From positions 1,364,001-1,428,000 of the forward strand of contig NZ_CP071798.1 of assembly GCF_017498505.1 (NCBI RefSeq): a DNA stretch of 64,000 nucleotides, given 5' to 3'. The DNA comes from Sporosarcina sp. Te-1. GTDB lineage: Bacteria > Bacillota > Bacilli > Bacillales_A > Planococcaceae. Shown here one piece after another: positions 1 through 7,397 of the stretch. How positions within the stretch are numbered: position 1 is the first letter of the stretch; each line of letters begins with the position of its first letter. The notes under the pieces are model-generated. The model saw only the letters and a list, made by a program, of their open reading frames with translations, had not been told where the DNA came from and did not search any database. Made by a program: the position numbers and the translations under genes.

Positions 1-40
1 TTATCCAAAACAACGGACGAAGGAATCCTTCGCCCGTTGT
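1..40 (-). terminator. Rho-independent terminator of the NSS transporter gene
   Basis: Two six-base stems (CAACGG with CCGTTG, CGAAGG with CCTTCG) separated by one mismatch and closed by a three-base loop. On the minus strand the hairpin is followed by TTTTGG, so it serves the transporter gene that ends just to its right. Confidence 0.75.
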
Positions 41-62
41 TTACTCTTCTACTCCCTATTTT

Positions 63-1385
63 TCAACCATTCCAAAATGAAGCGATAAATATGATGATAA
101 TAGCAAGTGGCGCGAGATAGCGGACAATCCCCTTCCAAATGGAATGAATTGCACCTCTTGTTTTCAACTCATCTGCCGTTTCATCCTTCGTCATCAAAAA
201 GCCGGCAAAGAAGGAAATCAGCAATGCGCCAATTGGCAAACCGAACCGACTCGTCAACATATCCGCAAAATCAAAGAATGTGCCGCCCGGCAGCTTCCAG
301 TTGGATAGTACGCCAAATGACAGGGCACTCGGAATACCAACAACAAATATGAGAATGCCGAACATCCAAGCAACCCTCTTTCGCTTCTCTAAATTTTTTC
401 CAATGCCTGTAGAAACGCCGATCTCCAACATGGAAATAGAAGAAGTCAGCGTTGCGAATAACATCAAAATGAAGAAAACAATCATGAAGAATCCGCCAAA
501 TGGAATTTCATTGAAAATAGCTGGTAAAATAACAAAAATTAGTCCAGGTCCTTCGCTGGGCGAGTGACCCAATGCAAAAACCGCAGGAAAGATCACCACA
601 CCTGCCAGTACTGAGATGAAAATATTTAATAACGAAACATTCCATGCGGACTGTCCCAGTCGTTCCTCCTTTGGCAAATAGGACGCATACGTCATCATCG
701 CAGTTACCCCTACGCTCAAAGAGAAGAACGCTTGACCAAGCGCCAACAGGAAGGTTTTCCCCGTCAAATAGCTCCAATCAGGAATAAACAAGAAACGGAG
801 CCCCTCAACAGCGCCCTCCAGTGTCAGTGATCGAATGGCCAGCACAATAAAAAAGAGGAAGAGCAACGGCATCATCCAACGACTCGCCCGTTCGATTCCT
901 CCTTTGATTCCGCCTTGCACGATCCAAACGGTCAACAGCATGAAAACCGCCTGTCCTGCCAAAACCTCAACGGGATTGGCAATAATCTCAGTAAACAGCT
1001 TCCCATAATCGGAACTGGATAACTGAAAAAATAAAGCCCGATATAAATAGGATAAAATCCATCCGCCGACCACGCTGTAGAACGACAACAGGATAAACGA
1101 CGTCCCGACACCCATCCAGCCGATCCAATACCATTTACGTCCCGGAGCCAGTATTTTCAAAGAAGTGACCGCGTCATGCTGTCCTCTGCGGCCAATTATG
1201 AATTCAGCCAATAAGATCGGCAGTCCGATTGACACTGTACATAAAATGAATAATAAAAGAAAGACACTTCCGCCATTTGAACCCGTCATGTAAGGGAATT
1301 TCCATATTGCACCGAGCCCAATTGCACTTCCGGCCGCAGCCAATACAAATCCAATTTTTGAGGTCCATTGCTCTCTCTGCTTCAA
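63..1385 (-). CDS. Neurotransmitter:sodium symporter (NSS) family transporter
   Basis: Predicted Na+-coupled importer of amino acids or related small amines in the cytoplasmic membrane (LeuT fold). The first helix carries the family signature GSAIGLGAIWKFPY near residues 19-32, where the unwound Gly/Ala stretch binds Na+ and substrate in known members. About 11-12 hydrophobic helices fill the 440 residues, the length of bacterial MhsT/YhdH-like members, which often have 11 helices. Substrate cannot be read from the sequence. It is monocistronic, with its own terminator, and faces away from tspO across a 156-bp intergenic region. The family assignment is secure; specificity is open. Confidence 0.9.
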   Translation of the reverse strand: MKQREQWTSKIGFVLAAAGSAIGLGAIWKFPYMTGSNGGSVFLLLFILCTVSIGLPILLAEFIIGRRGQHDAVTSLKILAPGRKWYWIGWMGVGTSFILLSFYSVVGGWILSYLYRALFFQLSSSDYGKLFTEIIANPVEVLAGQAVFMLLTVWIVQGGIKGGIERASRWMMPLLFLFFIVLAIRSLTLEGAVEGLRFLFIPDWSYLTGKTFLLALGQAFFSLSVGVTAMMTYASYLPKEERLGQSAWNVSLLNIFISVLAGVVIFPAVFALGHSPSEGPGLIFVILPAIFNEIPFGGFFMIVFFILMLFATLTSSISMLEIGVSTGIGKNLEKRKRVAWMFGILIFVVGIPSALSFGVLSNWKLPGGTFFDFADMLTSRFGLPIGALLISFFAGFLMTKDETADELKTRGAIHSIWKGIVRYLAPLAIIIIFIASFWNG

Positions 1386-1541
1386 TTGAAACCACTCTCT
1401 CTTCGCTGAATGCAGCTTTAATTTTGTTCAATTATAACGTAAAACGAGGAAGTTACCTTTATATTTATTATTCAGCAAACTTCTCCCCTTCTGTTTGAAA
1501 AAGTTCAGCCAGGGAATGACAGTACTAATGGAGGTGTTCGA

Positions 1542-2039
1542 ATGGAAGTAGTGAAAGTGAACGGCAAGCTGGATGGAAAACGGCTTGCTCTGACCGTGCT
1601 AGTGCCGATCATTGGCGGCTCCATTACAGGTTGGCTGGCGAATCGGCATGCACAGGAAAAATATAAGAAATTGGAGAAACCATCTTTTTCTCCACCACCG
1701 TCCATTTTCCCCATCGCTTGGACCACTCTATATGGGCTGATGGGCTTGGCTAAGTATCGGGTAGAAGCGAAGAAGGGATCGGGTAACAAGAAAGCGATTC
1801 CAATGTACGATATTCAACTCGGACTAAACTACTTATGGTCGTTCCTTTACTTCAGATGGGGCTTGCGTGGCACAGCACTGGTAGAAATGACAGTGTTGCT
1901 AGGTGCCATCGCCTTGACCGCTTACGAGTTTTACCAGGTCGATCGAACCGCAGGCACATTGATGATTCCTTACATCGGATGGGTGATGTTCGCCTTGACC
2001 TTGAACTATTCGACTTGGAAATTAAATGATCGGCAATAA
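1542..2039 (+). CDS. tspO: TspO/MBR family protein
   Basis: Small five-helix membrane protein related to the mitochondrial benzodiazepine receptor; bacterial members bind tetrapyrroles such as protoporphyrin and are linked to stress responses. The hallmark run of KPSFSPPPSIFPIAW around residues 46-60, the following LYGLMG, and a Trp-rich loop near residue 95 (LNYLWSFLYFRWG) all fit the family; 165 residues is the normal size. A strong GGAGGTG site ends five bases before the ATG. The gene stands alone and shares a bidirectional terminator with the convergent stress-protein gene. Physiological ligand is not deducible here. Confidence 0.92.
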   Translation: MEVVKVNGKLDGKRLALTVLVPIIGGSITGWLANRHAQEKYKKLEKPSFSPPPSIFPIAWTTLYGLMGLAKYRVEAKKGSGNKKAIPMYDIQLGLNYLWSFLYFRWGLRGTALVEMTVLLGAIALTAYEFYQVDRTAGTLMIPYIGWVMFALTLNYSTWKLNDRQ

Positions 2040-2044
2040 AGTAT

Positions 2045-2082
2045 AAAAGCTGTCTCCACCATGCAGTGGGAGACAGCTTTTA
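2045..2082. terminator. Bidirectional terminator between tspO and the stress-protein gene
   Basis: Inverted repeat AAAAGCTGTCTCC / GGGAGACAGCTTTT with a short loop. It has T-runs on both strands and lies between two convergent genes. Confidence 0.85.
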
Positions 2083-2089
2083 TATTTTA

Positions 2090-2503
2090 TCAAATTGAAA
2101 TTTCTTGTGGTTCTGCCCCTTTTTTATTCATCAGACGCATCCCTGTAGGCGTGACCTTCAAGATCACCAAATCGGGATCATCCGGACCGTCAAACCATGG
2201 CTTCATATGATCGTTCCATATTTTATCCTTCAAACCATCGTCATCGGAGATGGACACGGTTCCAGCAATCTCTAAAAAGGCATCTCCGAAACCTTCTCCA
2301 TCATAACCGATTAAAATATGGGTATTTGGGTTATCCTCCAATTCATCCACTTTGTCGGTCTTTTTGGAGGTTGCCGTGTAAAGGGTGAAGCCATCGTTAA
2401 AAAACGTCATATAACGACTGAAGGGTTTGCCTCCTTGCACGGTCGCCATCGTTCCGACATAGCTTTTGTCCAAGATTTTCTTTGCGGTTTCCTTTGCATC
2501 CAT
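2090..2503 (-). CDS. General stress protein, pyridoxamine 5'-phosphate oxidase-like fold
   Basis: A 137-residue split-barrel flavin-binding protein of the general stress protein 26 (YdaG-like) group. Visible features are the N-terminal helix MDAKETAKKILD, the strand pattern VGTMATVQGGKPFSRYMTF typical of the PNPOx fold, and a C-terminal VILKVTPTGMRLM strand. Members bind FMN or F420-like cofactors and are often sigma-B-induced; the substrate is unknown. An upstream in-frame ATG exists, but AAGGAGGAG sits directly before the ATG chosen here, so the shorter protein is preferred. Confidence 0.85.
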   Translation of the reverse strand: MDAKETAKKILDKSYVGTMATVQGGKPFSRYMTFFNDGFTLYTATSKKTDKVDELEDNPNTHILIGYDGEGFGDAFLEIAGTVSISDDDGLKDKIWNDHMKPWFDGPDDPDLVILKVTPTGMRLMNKKGAEPQEISI

Positions 2504-2575
2504 AGTAACACTCCTCCTTATTATCATCTCTTCCTACTCTTCCTATTTTGAAGCAGAGCTAAACATGCAGGGATT

Positions 2576-3628
2576 TCATAACAGGTAAAAACCGATGCCA
2601 ATAATAATGTAGGCTGCAAAAAGCGTCAAACCCTCAAACCAGTTCGATTCTCCGTCATTCGTCAAGTTAATGACTAGAAGCGTCGCTGTAATCATGGCGA
2701 TCAATTCCGGTATTGTAAATACAAGCGGCATCGACGTTTCCATAAATAACGAAACGAGCACAAGGACAGGAGCAACGAACATGGCAACTTGCAAAGTGGA
2801 GCCGACTGCAATTTCCACTGAGACATCCATCCGATTTTTCATGGCCATCGTAATCGCGGAGAAATGTTCTGCCGCATTCCCGACAATCGCTACGATGATG
2901 ACCCCAATGAATAATTCACTCCAGCCAAACTTCTCTCCCAATGTTTCAAACGTCCCAACTAGCTGCTCAGAAACAAACGCAACCGCCACCGTGGCAATGA
3001 AAAGAATGAGGACCGCTTTCCCCTTGGACCATTCCGGCTGTTCTGTCTCCTCTTCCTTCTTATCCGTTGCGGAGAAAACGCCTCGATGGGTTACCAATTT
3101 GAAAAACAACCCGGCCAAATAGAGAGCGATTAAGATAATCGAAATACCGATACTGAGGGTAATCGTAGCCTTTTCATCCATGCTCATGGAGAAAATCTCC
3201 GGTATGACAAACGCCACGATCACTGCGAAAATGAGCAGCCCCGAATTATAACGGGCGTCATGGAGGCTGAATCGTTGGCGTTTATATTTAATGCCTCCCG
3301 TAAAGAAGGAAAGGCCTAATACAAGCAGCAAATTGCCTAGGACGGAGCCTGTCAACGAGGCTAGGACAATTCCAATTAGTCCAGCTTGCAAAGTAAAAAA
3401 CGAGATAATCAGTTCAACCGCATTACCGAATGTGGCGTTTAACAGACCGCCCACCCTCGGGCCGCTGACAATCGCCAGACTTTCCGTCGCCCTGCCGATA
3501 TACCCCGCAAGGGCAACGATGCTCAAACAGCATAATAAAAACATCACAATATCATTCCAATGCAAAAAAGCGCCTGCAATAACAAGGGGAACACCAACAA
3601 AAGCAAGCACTGCGAAAACCCGATTCAT
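2576..3628 (-). CDS. chaA: Ca2+/H+ antiporter, CaCA superfamily (Cax/ChaA type)
   Basis: Integral membrane cation/proton exchanger that expels Ca2+ (possibly Na+ too). Two inverted alpha-repeat motifs are present, NATFGNAVELIISF near residue 63 and IVGNAAEHFSAITMAMKN near residue 247; their acidic residues coordinate the cation in this family. About 11 helices with a soluble acidic linker (KKEEETEQPEWSK) in the middle, as in B. subtilis YfkE/ChaA. An ATG six codons upstream overlaps the ribosome-binding site GAGGTGG, so the internal ATG placed nine bases after that site is taken as the start. Confidence 0.9.
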   Translation of the reverse strand: MNRVFAVLAFVGVPLVIAGAFLHWNDIVMFLLCCLSIVALAGYIGRATESLAIVSGPRVGGLLNATFGNAVELIISFFTLQAGLIGIVLASLTGSVLGNLLLVLGLSFFTGGIKYKRQRFSLHDARYNSGLLIFAVIVAFVIPEIFSMSMDEKATITLSIGISIILIALYLAGLFFKLVTHRGVFSATDKKEEETEQPEWSKGKAVLILFIATVAVAFVSEQLVGTFETLGEKFGWSELFIGVIIVAIVGNAAEHFSAITMAMKNRMDVSVEIAVGSTLQVAMFVAPVLVLVSLFMETSMPLVFTIPELIAMITATLLVINLTNDGESNWFEGLTLFAAYIIIGIGFYLL

Positions 3629-3747
3629 CAAAAAACACCACCTCATTGTGCGAAGATACCTTTCTAATGTTCCCCTTTTAAAACACTGGCAAACAGGCGT
3701 CCATATCCATACAAAAGTCCTTTTCTAATATAAGGATGATATTACCA

Positions 3748-3776
3748 TTGCAAAGAAATATGGTGAGGTGTATTAT
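3748..3776 (+). promoter_or_regulatory. Sigma-A promoter for the structured RNA
   Basis: TTGCAA (-35), a 17-bp spacer and TATTAT (-10). Transcription would start near 3783, exactly where the closing stem of the RNA begins. Confidence 0.7.
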
Positions 3777-3782
3777 ATAAAC

Positions 3783-3975
3783 ATAAGCTGCATTGTTCGT
3801 ATACACATTAAGTTTTAACCTTTAAGCTGTAAACGGGAGTTTTATATGAAAACCGGAATGGCAAGCCCAATCCATTATTGATTGGGACAAACAGGAACGT
3901 TTTTGCGAACACCCACTTTGAGGAGTGGTGGTTTAAAACTTTCTATGATTCGATACGGCAAAGGCGGCTTTCTTA
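3783..3975 (+). ncRNA. Structured non-coding RNA, possibly 6S (SsrS)-like
   Basis: A transcript of about 190 nt (about 240 nt if it runs to the terminator at 4024) starting from a good sigma-A promoter. Its two ends pair: AAGCTGC (3785-3791) with GCGGCTT (3964-3970), then TCGTAT (3797-3802) with ATACGG (3953-3958), then a perfect nine-base stem AAGTTTTAA (3810-3818) with TTAAAACTT (3933-3941). Inside lie local hairpins CCCAATC/GATTGGG (3866-3886), CGG-TTTT/AAAA-CCG (3834-3855) and CCACT/AGTGG (3913-3928). The long end-to-end closing stem with internal loops resembles 6S RNA, the RNA-polymerase-binding regulator, but the internal hairpins are more branched than textbook 6S. No credible coding frame covers it. 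The RNA call is supported by geometry; the family name is tentative. Confidence 0.6.
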
Positions 3976-3990
3976 AATCGTTAATGATAT

Positions 3991-4024
3991 GAGGTATCAC
4001 TCTTAACTGGGTGGTACCTTTTTT
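3991..4024 (+). terminator. Terminator downstream of the structured RNA
   Basis: AGGTATCAC / GTGGTACCT pair with one G-U, ten-base loop, followed by six T. It closes the RNA transcription unit. Confidence 0.75.
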
Positions 4025-4039
4025 GTGTGAAAAATTGGC

Positions 4040-4061
4040 TTGGGGTTAAATTGGGGTTAAA
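4040..4061. repeat. Perfect 11-bp tandem direct repeat
   Basis: TTGGGGTTAAA occurs twice back to back, 16 bp past the RNA terminator. Short direct repeats of this type serve as integrase arm-binding sites in some integrative elements, so this may be an attachment-site remnant; that is inference. Confidence 0.55.
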
Positions 4062-4098
4062 ATTCTTTTCAACTGGTGATAAAGGGCAATAAAAGATG

Positions 4099-4127
4099 AA
4101 AAGAGGAGGCTTATGCCCCCTCTTTTT
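4099..4127. terminator. Strong hairpin with T-runs on both strands
   Basis: AAAAGAGGAGGC / GCCCCCTCTTTT, four-base loop. It lies in a stretch (4025-4420) where no convincing gene is seen; what it terminates today is unclear. Apart from this hairpin and the direct repeat I see nothing else in that stretch. Confidence 0.6.
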
Positions 4128-4422
4128 CAATACATACTTTGCACTTTGACTATATCTACAATCGGTATGATCATCATTTAAAGTAGCTTTTTCCTTCTTT
4201 TTCAGTTCGTAAGTTTGGTTGTCAAAAAGGCGATGCATTGCGGTTTGAGTTATGTTTTGTTTGCTGTACATTTCTGGAGACGTCTATTTTCGTGATTTTA
4301 TTCGTGGTAACGTTTTATAAAGACCACATTAGATTCATTGAAAATGTGATTTCTTGAAAAACAACCACACTGAATGAAAACCTACTATATAAAATGCCGT
4401 TTTTCTTACTTGGTCTTAAAAC

Positions 4423-4461
4423 AAAAAATCAGCCGTCCCCATTAAGAGTTAGCGGCTGATT
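4423..4461 (-). terminator. Terminator downstream of the high-GC acetyltransferase
   Basis: AATCAGCCG / CGGCTGATT, nine-base stem. On the minus strand it is followed by TTTTTTGTTTT, so it can end transcription of the GNAT gene 170 bp upstream. Confidence 0.7.
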
Positions 4462-4631
4462 ACATATTGATTTTTGAAGATATTTGGGGTATTAGGATTA
4501 ACATGTTGAAAATAAAAGCTCCCCTCTTCAATCACTACAACCAGTGTTGAAATGTCCTTTCCAAGGAACACAGTTTCTTCATAATATTGGCTGTTGTAGG
4601 AGGACGAGCTGTCGTGCTGTCAGGCATGAGC

Positions 4632-5189
4632 TCAATCGGACAGCTTGCCCGGATGCCACACGCCGAGCCACTGCTCGGCGCCGTATTCCTCGATTCGCTC
4701 CACCTCGGTGAACCCCAGCTTCGCTGCGACGCGCATCGAGGCCTCGTTGGCAGTCTGGGTGGAGAGCACCACCGGCTCGCCGGGATGCGCATTGGCGAAC
4801 CAGTCGAGCACCGCTGTACACGCCTCGGTGGCATATCCGTTTCCCCATGCCTGCGGCAGGAACATGTAGCCGAGCCAGAGCTCCTCACCCTCTAGACGGA
4901 TGTGCCCCTTACGCTTCGGTTCACGCCGATCGAGCGTGATCATGCCGATCGTTGTTCCGTTGAGCTCGACTACGAAGAAGCCGAAGCGATGCCCGGGCAC
5001 CTCGGGCATCGCGCGCTCGAGCTCATCACGCGGTCGGCAACCGCCTACATAGGTGCCCACCTCTGGTGAGGCGAACAGGTCAATCAGCGCCGCACGGTCC
5101 CGGGCCTCAGACAGGCGGAGCAAGAGTCGCTCAGTTTTGATCGGGGCAGGTGGCCAGGCGACGGGGTGCACTGTGATCTCATCCGACAT
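4632..5189 (-). CDS. GNAT family N-acetyltransferase (RimJ/RimL type) with foreign base composition
   Basis: Acetyl-CoA-dependent N-acetyltransferase of 185 residues. The N-terminal IKTERLLLRLSEARDRAAL strand-helix and the acetyl-CoA loop QAWGNGYATEACTAVLDWF (about residues 114-132) are typical of RimJ/RimL-like GNATs; the closing AAKLGFTEVER is the conserved C-terminal helix-strand. Substrate unknown. The coding sequence is strikingly GC-rich, with G/C-ending codons throughout, against AT-rich flanks on both sides; the GC-rich block starts near 4590 and stops exactly at the start codon. The ribosome-binding site AAGGGAGA lies in the AT-rich part. This looks like a recently acquired, probably actinobacterial, gene. 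Confidence 0.85.
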   Translation of the reverse strand: MSDEITVHPVAWPPAPIKTERLLLRLSEARDRAALIDLFASPEVGTYVGGCRPRDELERAMPEVPGHRFGFFVVELNGTTIGMITLDRREPKRKGHIRLEGEELWLGYMFLPQAWGNGYATEACTAVLDWFANAHPGEPVVLSTQTANEASMRVAAKLGFTEVERIEEYGAEQWLGVWHPGKLSD

Positions 5190-5438
5190 GGTATTATCTC
5201 CCTTCTCGATTCTGTTTGTTTATATCTGACAACATATATTATTAATGTATTCCTCTGGATACCGATTTTATTAATACATGTCCTTAAGTCAGTTTCAACA
5301 CGATATTACCGATACTTGAGAGTAGGCAAACGCCCCCTCTTTTTTAGGCCACTGACTGGATGAAAGTGCTCTTCTGGTTACTATCAGTTCAGAGTGCGAC
5401 TGTCAAAGTCAAATGGAAAATATCCCTTTGATTATTGG

Positions 5439-6194
5439 TTAAAACACATTTCCTAGTCCATCACACTCGAATTCTATTGCAAAAGCTTTTTCAAAGATAA
5501 GATCATGTGTATTTATTTTTCCTTCGATGTAAATATGATATGTCCGCCCATCATCTAATAAAGTAGATTTCATAGAAGTTTGCTCCCATGTACCAAAACC
5601 ACCAACCAGCTCTGATGTAACAGTATCCACATTGCTAAATATCTGTCCGGTTTGATCGGAATCAAGCCGTGTATTAAACTTCGCCGTTACTTCGATTCTC
5701 TTAACGGAATCTGGAATGTAGATATAGGTCTGTTTTGTTGTTACGCCACTTGGATCAGTTATACCGGGCTTTAAATCTGTCGACACGGCAGCTATAACTT
5801 CACGCTCTCTTGCTAAAAATCCTTCCACATCCTGTTGAATCATAGCTTCAAAATCTTCTGGGGCCTGCCAATCAGATTCTTTAAAACTTTTCATTGGTTC
5901 AACTCCCAAACTTAAACCCATTTTTTTCTCGTTAACCTTATTTACAATTTCTACATACTGCTTATAATACTCTTCTTTTTGTTTTTGTGATAAGTTCAAA
6001 GTAGGCTTTGAATCTTCTCTTTCTAATGTGCCCTCTTCATTATTTTCGTCCCTTACAAACTCTCCGTCTTCATCTTGTCTCTCAATTAAGACCCCAACAT
6101 CTTTCTTTTCTTGTCCTTCTCTTTCCACATTTTTATCACATGCTGCTATGACTACAACGCTTAACAATGCCATAGTAACTACATATTTTTTTAT
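5439..6194 (-). CDS. Predicted lipoprotein of unknown function, probable AUA start
   Basis: Secreted lipoprotein with a lipobox VVIAAC, a charged low-complexity linker rich in Asp/Glu (about residues 25-60), a helical segment (LSQKQKEEYYKQYVEIVNK) and a beta-rich C-terminal domain. No family recognised. The first ATG in frame (6173) gives a signal peptide without basic residues. Seven codons further up, nine bases after a good AAGGAG site and just after an in-frame TGA, the frame reads ATA-AAA-AAA-TAT-GTA-GTT-ACT, encoding MKKYVVT if ATA initiates, which restores a normal signal peptide. I therefore place the start at the ATA; the alternative is ATG at 6173. Flanked by foreign and non-coding DNA. 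Confidence 0.65.
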   Translation of the reverse strand: MKKYVVTMALLSVVVIAACDKNVEREGQEKKDVGVLIERQDEDGEFVRDENNEEGTLEREDSKPTLNLSQKQKEEYYKQYVEIVNKVNEKKMGLSLGVEPMKSFKESDWQAPEDFEAMIQQDVEGFLAREREVIAAVSTDLKPGITDPSGVTTKQTYIYIPDSVKRIEVTAKFNTRLDSDQTGQIFSNVDTVTSELVGGFGTWEQTSMKSTLLDDGRTYHIYIEGKINTHDLIFEKAFAIEFECDGLGNVF

Positions 6195-6346
6195 GATTAA
6201 TCACTCCTTATTAGAAATCTAGGCAACGAACACCAACCGTCATAAAAACATCCAAATATTCATTACTTTCATTTTACATTAAACAGAAAAAATTTACCAT
6301 CCGCCAATAAATTTGCTTTCCATATTGCTTTTTATAAAGAAAAGGA

Positions 6347-6390
6347 CCATAGGCAAACTCGAAATTTACGAATTTGTCTACAGTCTATGG
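6347..6390 (-). terminator. Imperfect hairpin downstream of the DedA gene
   Basis: CCATAG / CTATGG outer stem and CAAACTCG / CGAATTTG inner stem with one mismatch, followed on the minus strand by CCTTTTCTTTAT. Likely terminator of the gene ending at 6551. The rest of the 6195-6550 gap shows nothing else. Confidence 0.45.
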
Positions 6391-6550
6391 AATCCCACCA
6401 AGACGCTTGGTTTCTTAAATATACTCTTATTACAAACATTGTTTAATCAAAATACGGAAAATCGTTAGCCTGCTTAGTAGCTACAGTAATCTGAACTGGA
6501 CAACTGCAGAGCCTTTTAAGTAATATATATTTACCATTTTTTGATCATAT

Positions 6551-7204
6551 TCATTTTTTCGTAAAAATATTTTTTATAACGGAATAAAGCGCAGGTAGAA
6601 CAGAAAGGAGGATAACCGCCATTATAATCGCTGAAAAGTTCTCTTTAACAAATGGCAAGTTGCCGAAAAAGTAGCCCACGATTGTAAATAAGCCAACCCA
6701 TAACAAAGCCCCTACAATATTATAAGTGAAGAAATATTTATAATTCATTTTACTTGAACCGGCAATAAAGGGAACAAAGGTGCGAACAAATGGCATAAAG
6801 CGGGCAATGACAATTGTTTTTCCACCATGCTTATTAAAGAACTTCTCGGCCGTGTTCATTTTCGCCTCATTAATAAACCTGCCTATCAAAGGATTTCGAG
6901 TGATCGCTGTTCCAACTGTCTTACCGATATGATAATTTAATGAGTCTCCAATCACGGCAGCTACAAAAAAGACTAGAAATAGTAAAACGATATTAAATGC
7001 ATCCATTGCTGCCAAGGCACCCGCAGCAAGGAGAAGGGAATCGCCAGGCAGGAAAGGGAAAATTACAACCCCTGTTTCAACAAAAACAATTAGAAAAACG
7101 ATTACATAGGACCATGGGCCAAAGTTTTGAATAATTTCAATTAAATGTTCGTCAATATGTAAAATAAAACTTATGATGCCTTGAATAAAGGACAAATTCA
7201 TCAC
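6551..7204 (-). CDS. DedA family membrane protein
   Basis: Polytopic membrane protein of the DedA / VTT-domain family. Members are implicated in undecaprenyl-phosphate or phospholipid flipping and membrane homeostasis; the exact substrate of this copy is not known. Family marks: FPFLPGDSLLLAAGALA around residues 49-65, IGDSLNYHIGKTVG with the conserved Gly-Asp, KFFNKHGGKTIVIARFMPFVRTFVPFIAG near residues 122-150 with the essential Arg residues. The double ATG at the start leaves the initiator ambiguous by one codon; the Shine-Dalgarno site is weak. Single gene. Confidence 0.9.
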   Translation of the reverse strand: MMNLSFIQGIISFILHIDEHLIEIIQNFGPWSYVIVFLIVFVETGVVIFPFLPGDSLLLAAGALAAMDAFNIVLLFLVFFVAAVIGDSLNYHIGKTVGTAITRNPLIGRFINEAKMNTAEKFFNKHGGKTIVIARFMPFVRTFVPFIAGSSKMNYKYFFTYNIVGALLWVGLFTIVGYFFGNLPFVKENFSAIIMAVILLSVLPALYSVIKNIFTKK

Positions 7205-7397
7205 ACTTTCGTATTTATTTGATCGTCTCTTTCTTGTGTCCTAGCTGTAATAAGTCGTTGGCTTTCGAGTATACTTCCATGAATAAGTATAGAAACGTTC
7301 ATTCGATTAAGCAAGCAAGAAAAAGTGAATGGCCTCTCAGATTGGAAGGGTTTTGGCTTGCTGTGAAGAATATAACAAGAAAAGGAGGAATATAAAA

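What the first reader, a model, noticed from the sequence alone, without database searches (positions are those of the whole stretch)
3748..4024. Orphan structured RNA with end-to-end closing stem, promoter and terminator
A complete transcription unit without a protein: TTGCAA-17-TATTAT, three coaxial closing stems (7, 6 and 9 bp), local hairpins, and a terminator. 6S RNA is the first candidate; the branched interior leaves room for another class.
Basis: partly seen in the sequence, partly recalled or inferred. Interest (0 to 1): 0.62.

Follow-up and report, generated by a model that had tools for sequence, protein, structure and literature searches.

The report
Second 6S RNA gene (6S-2 type)
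The stretch is a gene for 6S-2 RNA, a known small RNA that mimics an open promoter to hold back the cell's main RNA polymerase; it is an ordinary member of a known family, although standard Rfam screening overlooks this copy.

Summary
Window 3782-3974 (+) matches Rfam RF00013 over its full length (positions 1-187, 81.7 bits, gathering score 46.4, E 2.1e-16). The default Rfam scan of the window lists nothing: its speed filters lose 8 of 20 loci of this type that were tested, this one included. The genome has one other 6S gene, between aspS and tcdA, carrying the template of B. subtilis 6S-1 pRNA. The window copy is thus the other paralogue. Its core is shared with 15 named Bacillus records. A tree of rows chosen by covariance-model coordinates alone splits the two types 25/25 with support 100/100 across several families. 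It is therefore a 6S-2 (BsrB) orthologue. It is found in 67 of 68 genomes of the genus, with covariation in the closing and apical stems and a promoter and terminator at most copies. Expression, polymerase binding and pRNA synthesis are inferred. Verdict: new member of a known kind, low interest. Side observation: some relatives carry up to five 6S-2 copies, some in tandem.

The parts
3748..3753 (+). -35 element TTGCAA of the predicted sigma-A promoter
   Evidence: A promoter-like pair of at least 9/12 lies upstream of 85 of 116 unique 6S-2 copies, against 124 of 1160 single-base shuffles of the same flanks.
3771..3776 (+). -10 element TATTAT
   Evidence: 17-nt spacer. Where a pair was found, its -10 most often ends 4-6 nt before the aligned RNA start.
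3782..3974 (+). 6S-2 (BsrB-type) RNA, about 193 nt; true ends not mapped
   Evidence: RF00013, model positions 1-187, 81.7 bits; trees and covariation.
3810..3823 (+). Inferred pRNA template AAGTTTTAACCTTT; the pRNA would read AAAGGUUAAAACUU
   Evidence: 113 of 116 unique type-2 copies have all 14 letters and 3 read AAGTTTTAACCCTT; the copies were picked by the first 11 letters, so only the last three test anything. Same place as the published 6S-1 template. The start nucleotide is inferred.
3913..3928 (+). 3' central-bubble hairpin CCACTTTGAGGAGTGG
   Evidence: In the minimum-energy fold, and extended when the template is held unpaired as if pRNA-bound; a 3' central-bubble hairpin is described for B. 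subtilis 6S-1 (PMC8876501, passages). The alignment consensus does not contain it: it pairs part of these letters elsewhere.
3991..4024 (+). Intrinsic terminator: 12-bp stem, 6-nt loop, T run
   Evidence: A terminator-like site downstream of 94 of 116 unique 6S-2 copies, against 24 of 1160 single-base shuffles.

Best explanation
This is the gene for the 6S-2 (BsrB-type) RNA of a Sporosarcina-like bacterium. A sigma-A promoter transcribes about 193 nt plus a terminator tail. The RNA folds into a rod with a central bubble that imitates an open promoter. It binds and occupies sigma-A RNA polymerase. The polymerase then copies the bubble's 5' strand into a short pRNA (expected AAAGGUUAAAACUU...), which opens the flanking helix, lets the 3' strand fold into a hairpin and releases the enzyme. 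Shown here: sequence, structure conservation, promoter and terminator signals, template conservation and orthology. Inferred from the family: expression, polymerase binding, pRNA synthesis and release.
For: RF00013 full-length match of 81.7 bits. Two 6S genes in the genome: 6S-1 between aspS and tcdA with the exact complement of the 6S-1 pRNA, and this one. In a tree of 50 rows taken by covariance-model coordinates, without any motif, the two types are 25 rows each, support 100/100; each of the 13 sampled genomes outside the family has one copy on either side. The type-2 core matches 15 Bacillus and 3 Sporosarcina records. Covariation: 14 of 47 pairs change on both sides and stay paired, 97.5% of cells are paired, and no shuffle of 500 reaches this. 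With the template held unpaired, the 3' strand refolds into an extended hairpin at -48.0 against -50.6 kcal/mol.
Against: The default Rfam scan misses it, but this is a filter effect: the score is 35 bits over the cut-off. The neighbourhood seen in B. tequilensis (azoreductase and RecQ) is not kept here; the neighbour is cax. No transcript data. Helices 2-4, which hold the template and bubble, show no two-sided change. The genomes outside the family were picked because they contain the type-2 template; how many genomes of the class lack 6S-2 was not measured.
Confidence: 0.96

Rival explanations
1. A T-box or other leader: the terminator's 3' arm reads GGGTGGTACC, like the T-box sequence, and the RNA would regulate a downstream gene.
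For: The motif GGGTGGTACC at 4009-4018 (the T-box resemblance is recalled).
Against: No T-box match up to E 10. Other copies have terminators of other sequence. The next likely gene downstream, the acetyltransferase-like frame 4632-5189, is on the opposite strand, and that stretch does not match three named sister loci.
Confidence: 0.01
2. A lineage-specific second copy of 6S-1 in Sporosarcina, unrelated to Bacillus 6S-2.
For: The genomic neighbourhood differs from that of the copy in B. tequilensis.
Against: Own 6S-2 and own 6S-1 are 60% identical, while own 6S-2 is 77-78% identical to the copies of B. inaquosorum, B. tequilensis and B. velezensis. Both trees put type 2 of all sampled families together, one of them without motif selection.
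Confidence: 0.02
3. A decayed, unexpressed 6S copy.
For: It scores below the 6S-1 copy (81.7 against 99.7 bits).
Against: Promoter, terminator, template and stems are intact, and the gene is kept in 67 of 68 genomes of the genus.
Confidence: 0.02

Closest known systems
6S-2 RNA (BsrB) of the Bacillus subtilis group
   Same: Template AAGTTTTAACCTTT, GGGAGTTTTATAT and the CACCCACTTTGAGGAGTGGTGGTTTAAAACTTTC core; 77-78% identity over the RNA in three species compared; one of two 6S genes in the sampled genomes of that genus.
   Different: Genomic place: next to cax here, between azoreductase and RecQ in B. tequilensis; terminator sequence; apical stem sequence. B. subtilis itself was not among the records matched; its close relatives were.
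6S-1 RNA (BsrA)
   Same: Same family and rod architecture (RF00013).
   Different: Different template (AGTTTTGACCGAAC) and place (aspS-tcdA, as reported for B. subtilis bsrA in PMC11077062, passages read); 60% identity to the window copy.
Tandem 6S genes ssrSA/ssrSB of the Bacillus cereus group (PMC7726162, abstract and passages)
   Same: Two 6S paralogues; deletion of 6S-2 did not inhibit growth in stationary phase there.
   Different: There they are co-transcribed neighbours; here the two genes lie about 0.99 Mb apart on one contig.

Membership tests
6S RNA (RF00013) | Covariance-model score over the curated cut-off, full length | tested here: met
   81.7 bits against 46.4, positions 1-187. 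The default filters miss it.
6S RNA (RF00013) | Rod of about 190 nt with closing stem, central bubble and apical stem, supported by covariation | tested here: met
   47 pairs, 14 with changes on both sides, 0 of 500 shuffles as high. Two-sided changes lie in helices 1, 5, 6 and 7; helices 2-4 have none and so give no covariation support.
6S RNA (RF00013) | Binds the housekeeping RNA polymerase holoenzyme | not testable with these tools
   Needs co-purification or RIP-seq.
6S RNA (RF00013) | Templates pRNA synthesis that releases the polymerase | not testable with these tools
   Only template conservation and a refolding calculation are available.
6S-2 (BsrB) subtype | Groups with Bacillus 6S-2, apart from 6S-1 | tested here: met
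   Motif-blind tree of 50 rows, 25/25, support 100/100; tree of 94 motif-chosen rows, SH-aLRT 100.
6S-2 (BsrB) subtype | A separate 6S-1 gene in the same genome | tested here: met
   G000:C1:375822-376004, 99.7 bits, between aspS and tcdA, with the 6S-1 pRNA template.
6S-2 (BsrB) subtype | Same gene neighbourhood as in Bacillus (typical, not defining) | tested here: not met
   cax here; azoreductase and RecQ in B. tequilensis L168.
T-box leader | Rfam T-box model match upstream of a regulated gene | tested here: not met
   No such match up to E 10.

The most novel reading that the evidence does not exclude
In this family 6S-2 has become a dosage-amplified, independently promoted regulator: several relatives carry two to five 6S-2 genes, some in tandem, with the pRNA template kept. 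Combined 6S-2 level and an A-started pRNA would then tune polymerase release to ATP rather than GTP. The window genome itself keeps a single copy.
Probability: 0.15. Interest if true: 0.45.

Novelty: new member of a known kind. Interest (0 to 1): 0.17.

Why it matters
It fills an annotation gap: a conserved global regulator that routine Rfam screening can overlook. It suggests that 6S-2 and 6S-1 were already separate before the sampled families of Bacilli split. The multi-copy relatives offer natural material for the open question of what 6S-2 does: PMC7726162 (passages) states that lack of 6S-2 did not seem to affect growth and sporulation of B. subtilis in stationary phase. The title of a 2021 paper on an undomesticated B. 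subtilis strain reports biofilm derepression (reference seen; paper not held).

Tried and rejected
Default Rfam scan of the window: 0 matches, a false negative of the speed filters. T-box reading of the terminator's 3' arm: rejected. The minus strand folds weakly. tRNA/tmRNA: none. The 13 other Rfam matches, all under their cut-offs (E 0.035 to 9.8), are treated as chance.

The literature searches for 6S RNA with Sporosarcina, Lysinibacillus and Planococcaceae listed 1, 2 and 0 papers. I opened none of the three; by title none is a 6S study. Three papers on B. subtilis 6S-2 are not held, so the published 6S-2 pRNA sequence was not seen. That bsrB lies between yocI and yocJ, and that the RecQ and azoreductase genes are these, is recalled.

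The first tree used rows picked by the template motif and left out four loci that matched neither motif search (L184, L189, L190, L191). Because of that I built a second tree from covariance-model coordinates, with those four included; all four fall on the 6S-1 side. A first attempt at it failed on one odd-length locus.

Full report
Observation. The + strand fold of 3780-4026 is -68.4 kcal/mol, z -3.27, and none of 200 shuffles does as well; the - strand gives z -1.09. The 7-bp closing stem is there; the inner closing stems are 4+5, 3 and 9+2 bp rather than 6 and 9.

Identity. A permissive Rfam search of 3600-4500 gives RF00013 (6S RNA) at 3782-3974, model positions 1-187 of 187, 81.7 bits against a gathering score of 46.4, E 2.1e-16. 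The default search of the window lists nothing. The cause is the speed filters: among 20 of the 30 loci brought in by the BLASTN search, the default search finds 12 and misses 8, the window locus among the missed. It finds 19 of 20 type-2 loci taken mainly from the list and 20 of 20 type-1 loci from that list; itself used strict filters, so both of these sets are biased towards being found.

Two 6S genes. The genome has exactly two matches up to E 10, 375822-376004 (99.7 bits) and the window copy (81.7 bits). The first lies between aspS and tcdA: one search shows the two frames, names TcdA (152.5 bits, under that model's cut-off of 304), and aspS is read from the sequence by eye. B. subtilis bsrA is reported between aspS and yrvM (PMC11077062, passages read). 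The first copy contains AGTTTTGACCGAAC, the exact complement of the B. subtilis 6S-1 pRNA 5'-GUUCGGUCAAAACU (PMC12005410, passages read; sequence). The window copy has AAGTTTTAACCTTT at the same place (3810-3823).

Orthology. A 53-letter pattern from the window's core matches 18 named stretches: 15 Bacillus (among them B. tequilensis, inaquosorum, halotolerans, mojavensis, velezensis, pumilus) and 3 Sporosarcina. In B. tequilensis it lies between an FMN-dependent azoreductase and RecQ, the bsrB neighbourhood as I recall it. The 14-base template occurs in 49 of 299 genomes of the class, but a 14-base word alone proves little: the same word read backwards matched in about 34 of them (my count of the control columns). 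Of the 25 loci L126-L150 read from it, 20 were given to a permissive Rfam search: 14 have a 6S match and 6 have none. Fourteen genomes, 13 of other families plus one multi-copy relative, were then searched: 13 have exactly two 6S matches and one, G240, has six. The 13 had been picked because they hold the type-2 template, so this is no survey.

Trees. A tree of 94 rows (48 type 2, 46 type 1) picked by template motif has each type as one side of a branch, SH-aLRT 100. Since motif selection favours such a split, I built a second tree of 50 rows taken only by covariance-model coordinates: all 30 loci, plus 12 and 8 loci from the own genome and genus. It splits 25/25 with support 100/100. Every one of the 13 genomes outside the family has one copy on each side, and the window copy lies with the Bacillus-type second copies. 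L184 and L180 are long branches there. Own 6S-2 and own 6S-1 are 60% identical, while own 6S-2 is 77-78% identical to three Bacillus copies.

Conservation. In the genus, 51 of 68 genomes show two or more matches in the strict-filter search, 16 show one and one shows none. The type-2 copy was recovered in all of those 16. One genome, G026 (75% complete), has none. That makes 67 of 68. The type was checked by the core motif in the 80 rows extracted (all 80 carry it) and, for G033, by its identity with G032. One search found the core in 157 places over all loci held, 116 unique; 113 of these have the full 14-base template and 3 read AAGTTTTAACCCTT. On 39 representatives (each under 88% identical to the others, from 116 unique), RNAalifold predicts 47 pairs, 14 with a change on both sides. 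Cells paired are 97.5% against 92.3% in shuffles, and all five measures exceed all 500 shuffles and the six slid versions (38.9-54.9% paired). The structure was predicted on this same alignment, which favours it over the slid versions. The two-sided changes fall in the closing stem and the apical stems; helices 2-4, which hold the template and bubble, hardly vary and give no covariation support. A promoter-like pair of at least 9 of 12 lies upstream of 85 of 116 unique copies (124 of 1160 single-base shuffles), and a terminator-like site downstream of 94 of 116 (24 of 1160).

Mechanism. When the template is held unpaired, as if bound by pRNA, the 3' strand of the bubble folds into an extended hairpin at -48.0 against -50.6 kcal/mol for the free RNA. 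In B. subtilis 6S-1 a 3' hairpin is present already in the free RNA and a central-bubble collapse helix aids release; an extended hairpin is the E. coli mode (PMC8876501, passages read). The prediction for the window RNA leans to the E. coli-like mode, but one fold calculation cannot decide this. Expression, binding, pRNA start and release are inferred from the family.

Surroundings. Window 1-4053 is collinear with Sporosarcina luteola S00266 (90% identity), 75-4035 with S. cyprini (83%) and 441-4035 with Sporosarcina sp. NCCP-2222 (82%); then the alignments stop just after the 6S terminator. In the last two they resume near 7350; the S. luteola locus held showed no further match downstream. 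So cax next to 6S-2 is kept in these three, and the DNA after the terminator is variable. Neighbours in the other relatives were not examined.

Copy number. In the genus, 12 of 68 genomes have three or more 6S matches (my count; a lower bound, since one search shows further second copies, as in G005 and G016). G070 has six, one type 1 and five type 2. Over the family, 26 of 200 genomes show three or more (my count; lower bounds, since only 12 candidates per genome were scored, and the types were not determined for most). G240 has one type-1 copy and five type-2 copies, four of them head to tail every 264 bases. Two tandem 6S genes are known in the B. cereus group (PMC7726162). I did not see higher numbers in the passages and listings that I read, which is a narrow search.

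Verdict. The finding is real and correctly guessed. It is an ordinary 6S-2 RNA gene: a new member of a known kind.

Noticed in passing
L062-L066 (G070), L067 (G087), L068-L069 (G081), L070-L072 (G091), L200 and L202 (G240, array cores at L202 1527, 1791, 2055, 2319): Several relatives carry three to five type-2 6S genes; in G240 four stand head to tail every 264 bases, each with AT-rich upstream stretches holding TTG- and TAATAT-like words. The G070 copies are 76-94% identical to one another.
   Followed up: partly
window 3782-3974: Rfam's default filters miss this 6S RNA although it scores 35 bits over the cut-off; 8 of 20 loci of this type, this one included, are missed.
   Followed up: yes
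window 4632-5189 (-): An acetyltransferase-like frame of about 62-65% G+C in surroundings of about 32-50%; only weak matches to aminoglycoside and bleomycin acetyltransferase models, far under their cut-offs. It lies in a stretch (about 4053-7346) that does not match three named sister loci; looks acquired.
   Followed up: partly
window 4009-4018: The terminator's 3' arm reads GGGTGGTACC, like a T-box sequence (recalled); no T-box model match, probably coincidence.
   Followed up: yes
L018 574-661, L020 457-544, L025 2419-2506: RF01410 (BsrC) matches about 0.7-1.0 kb from the type-2 6S gene in three relatives.
   Followed up: no
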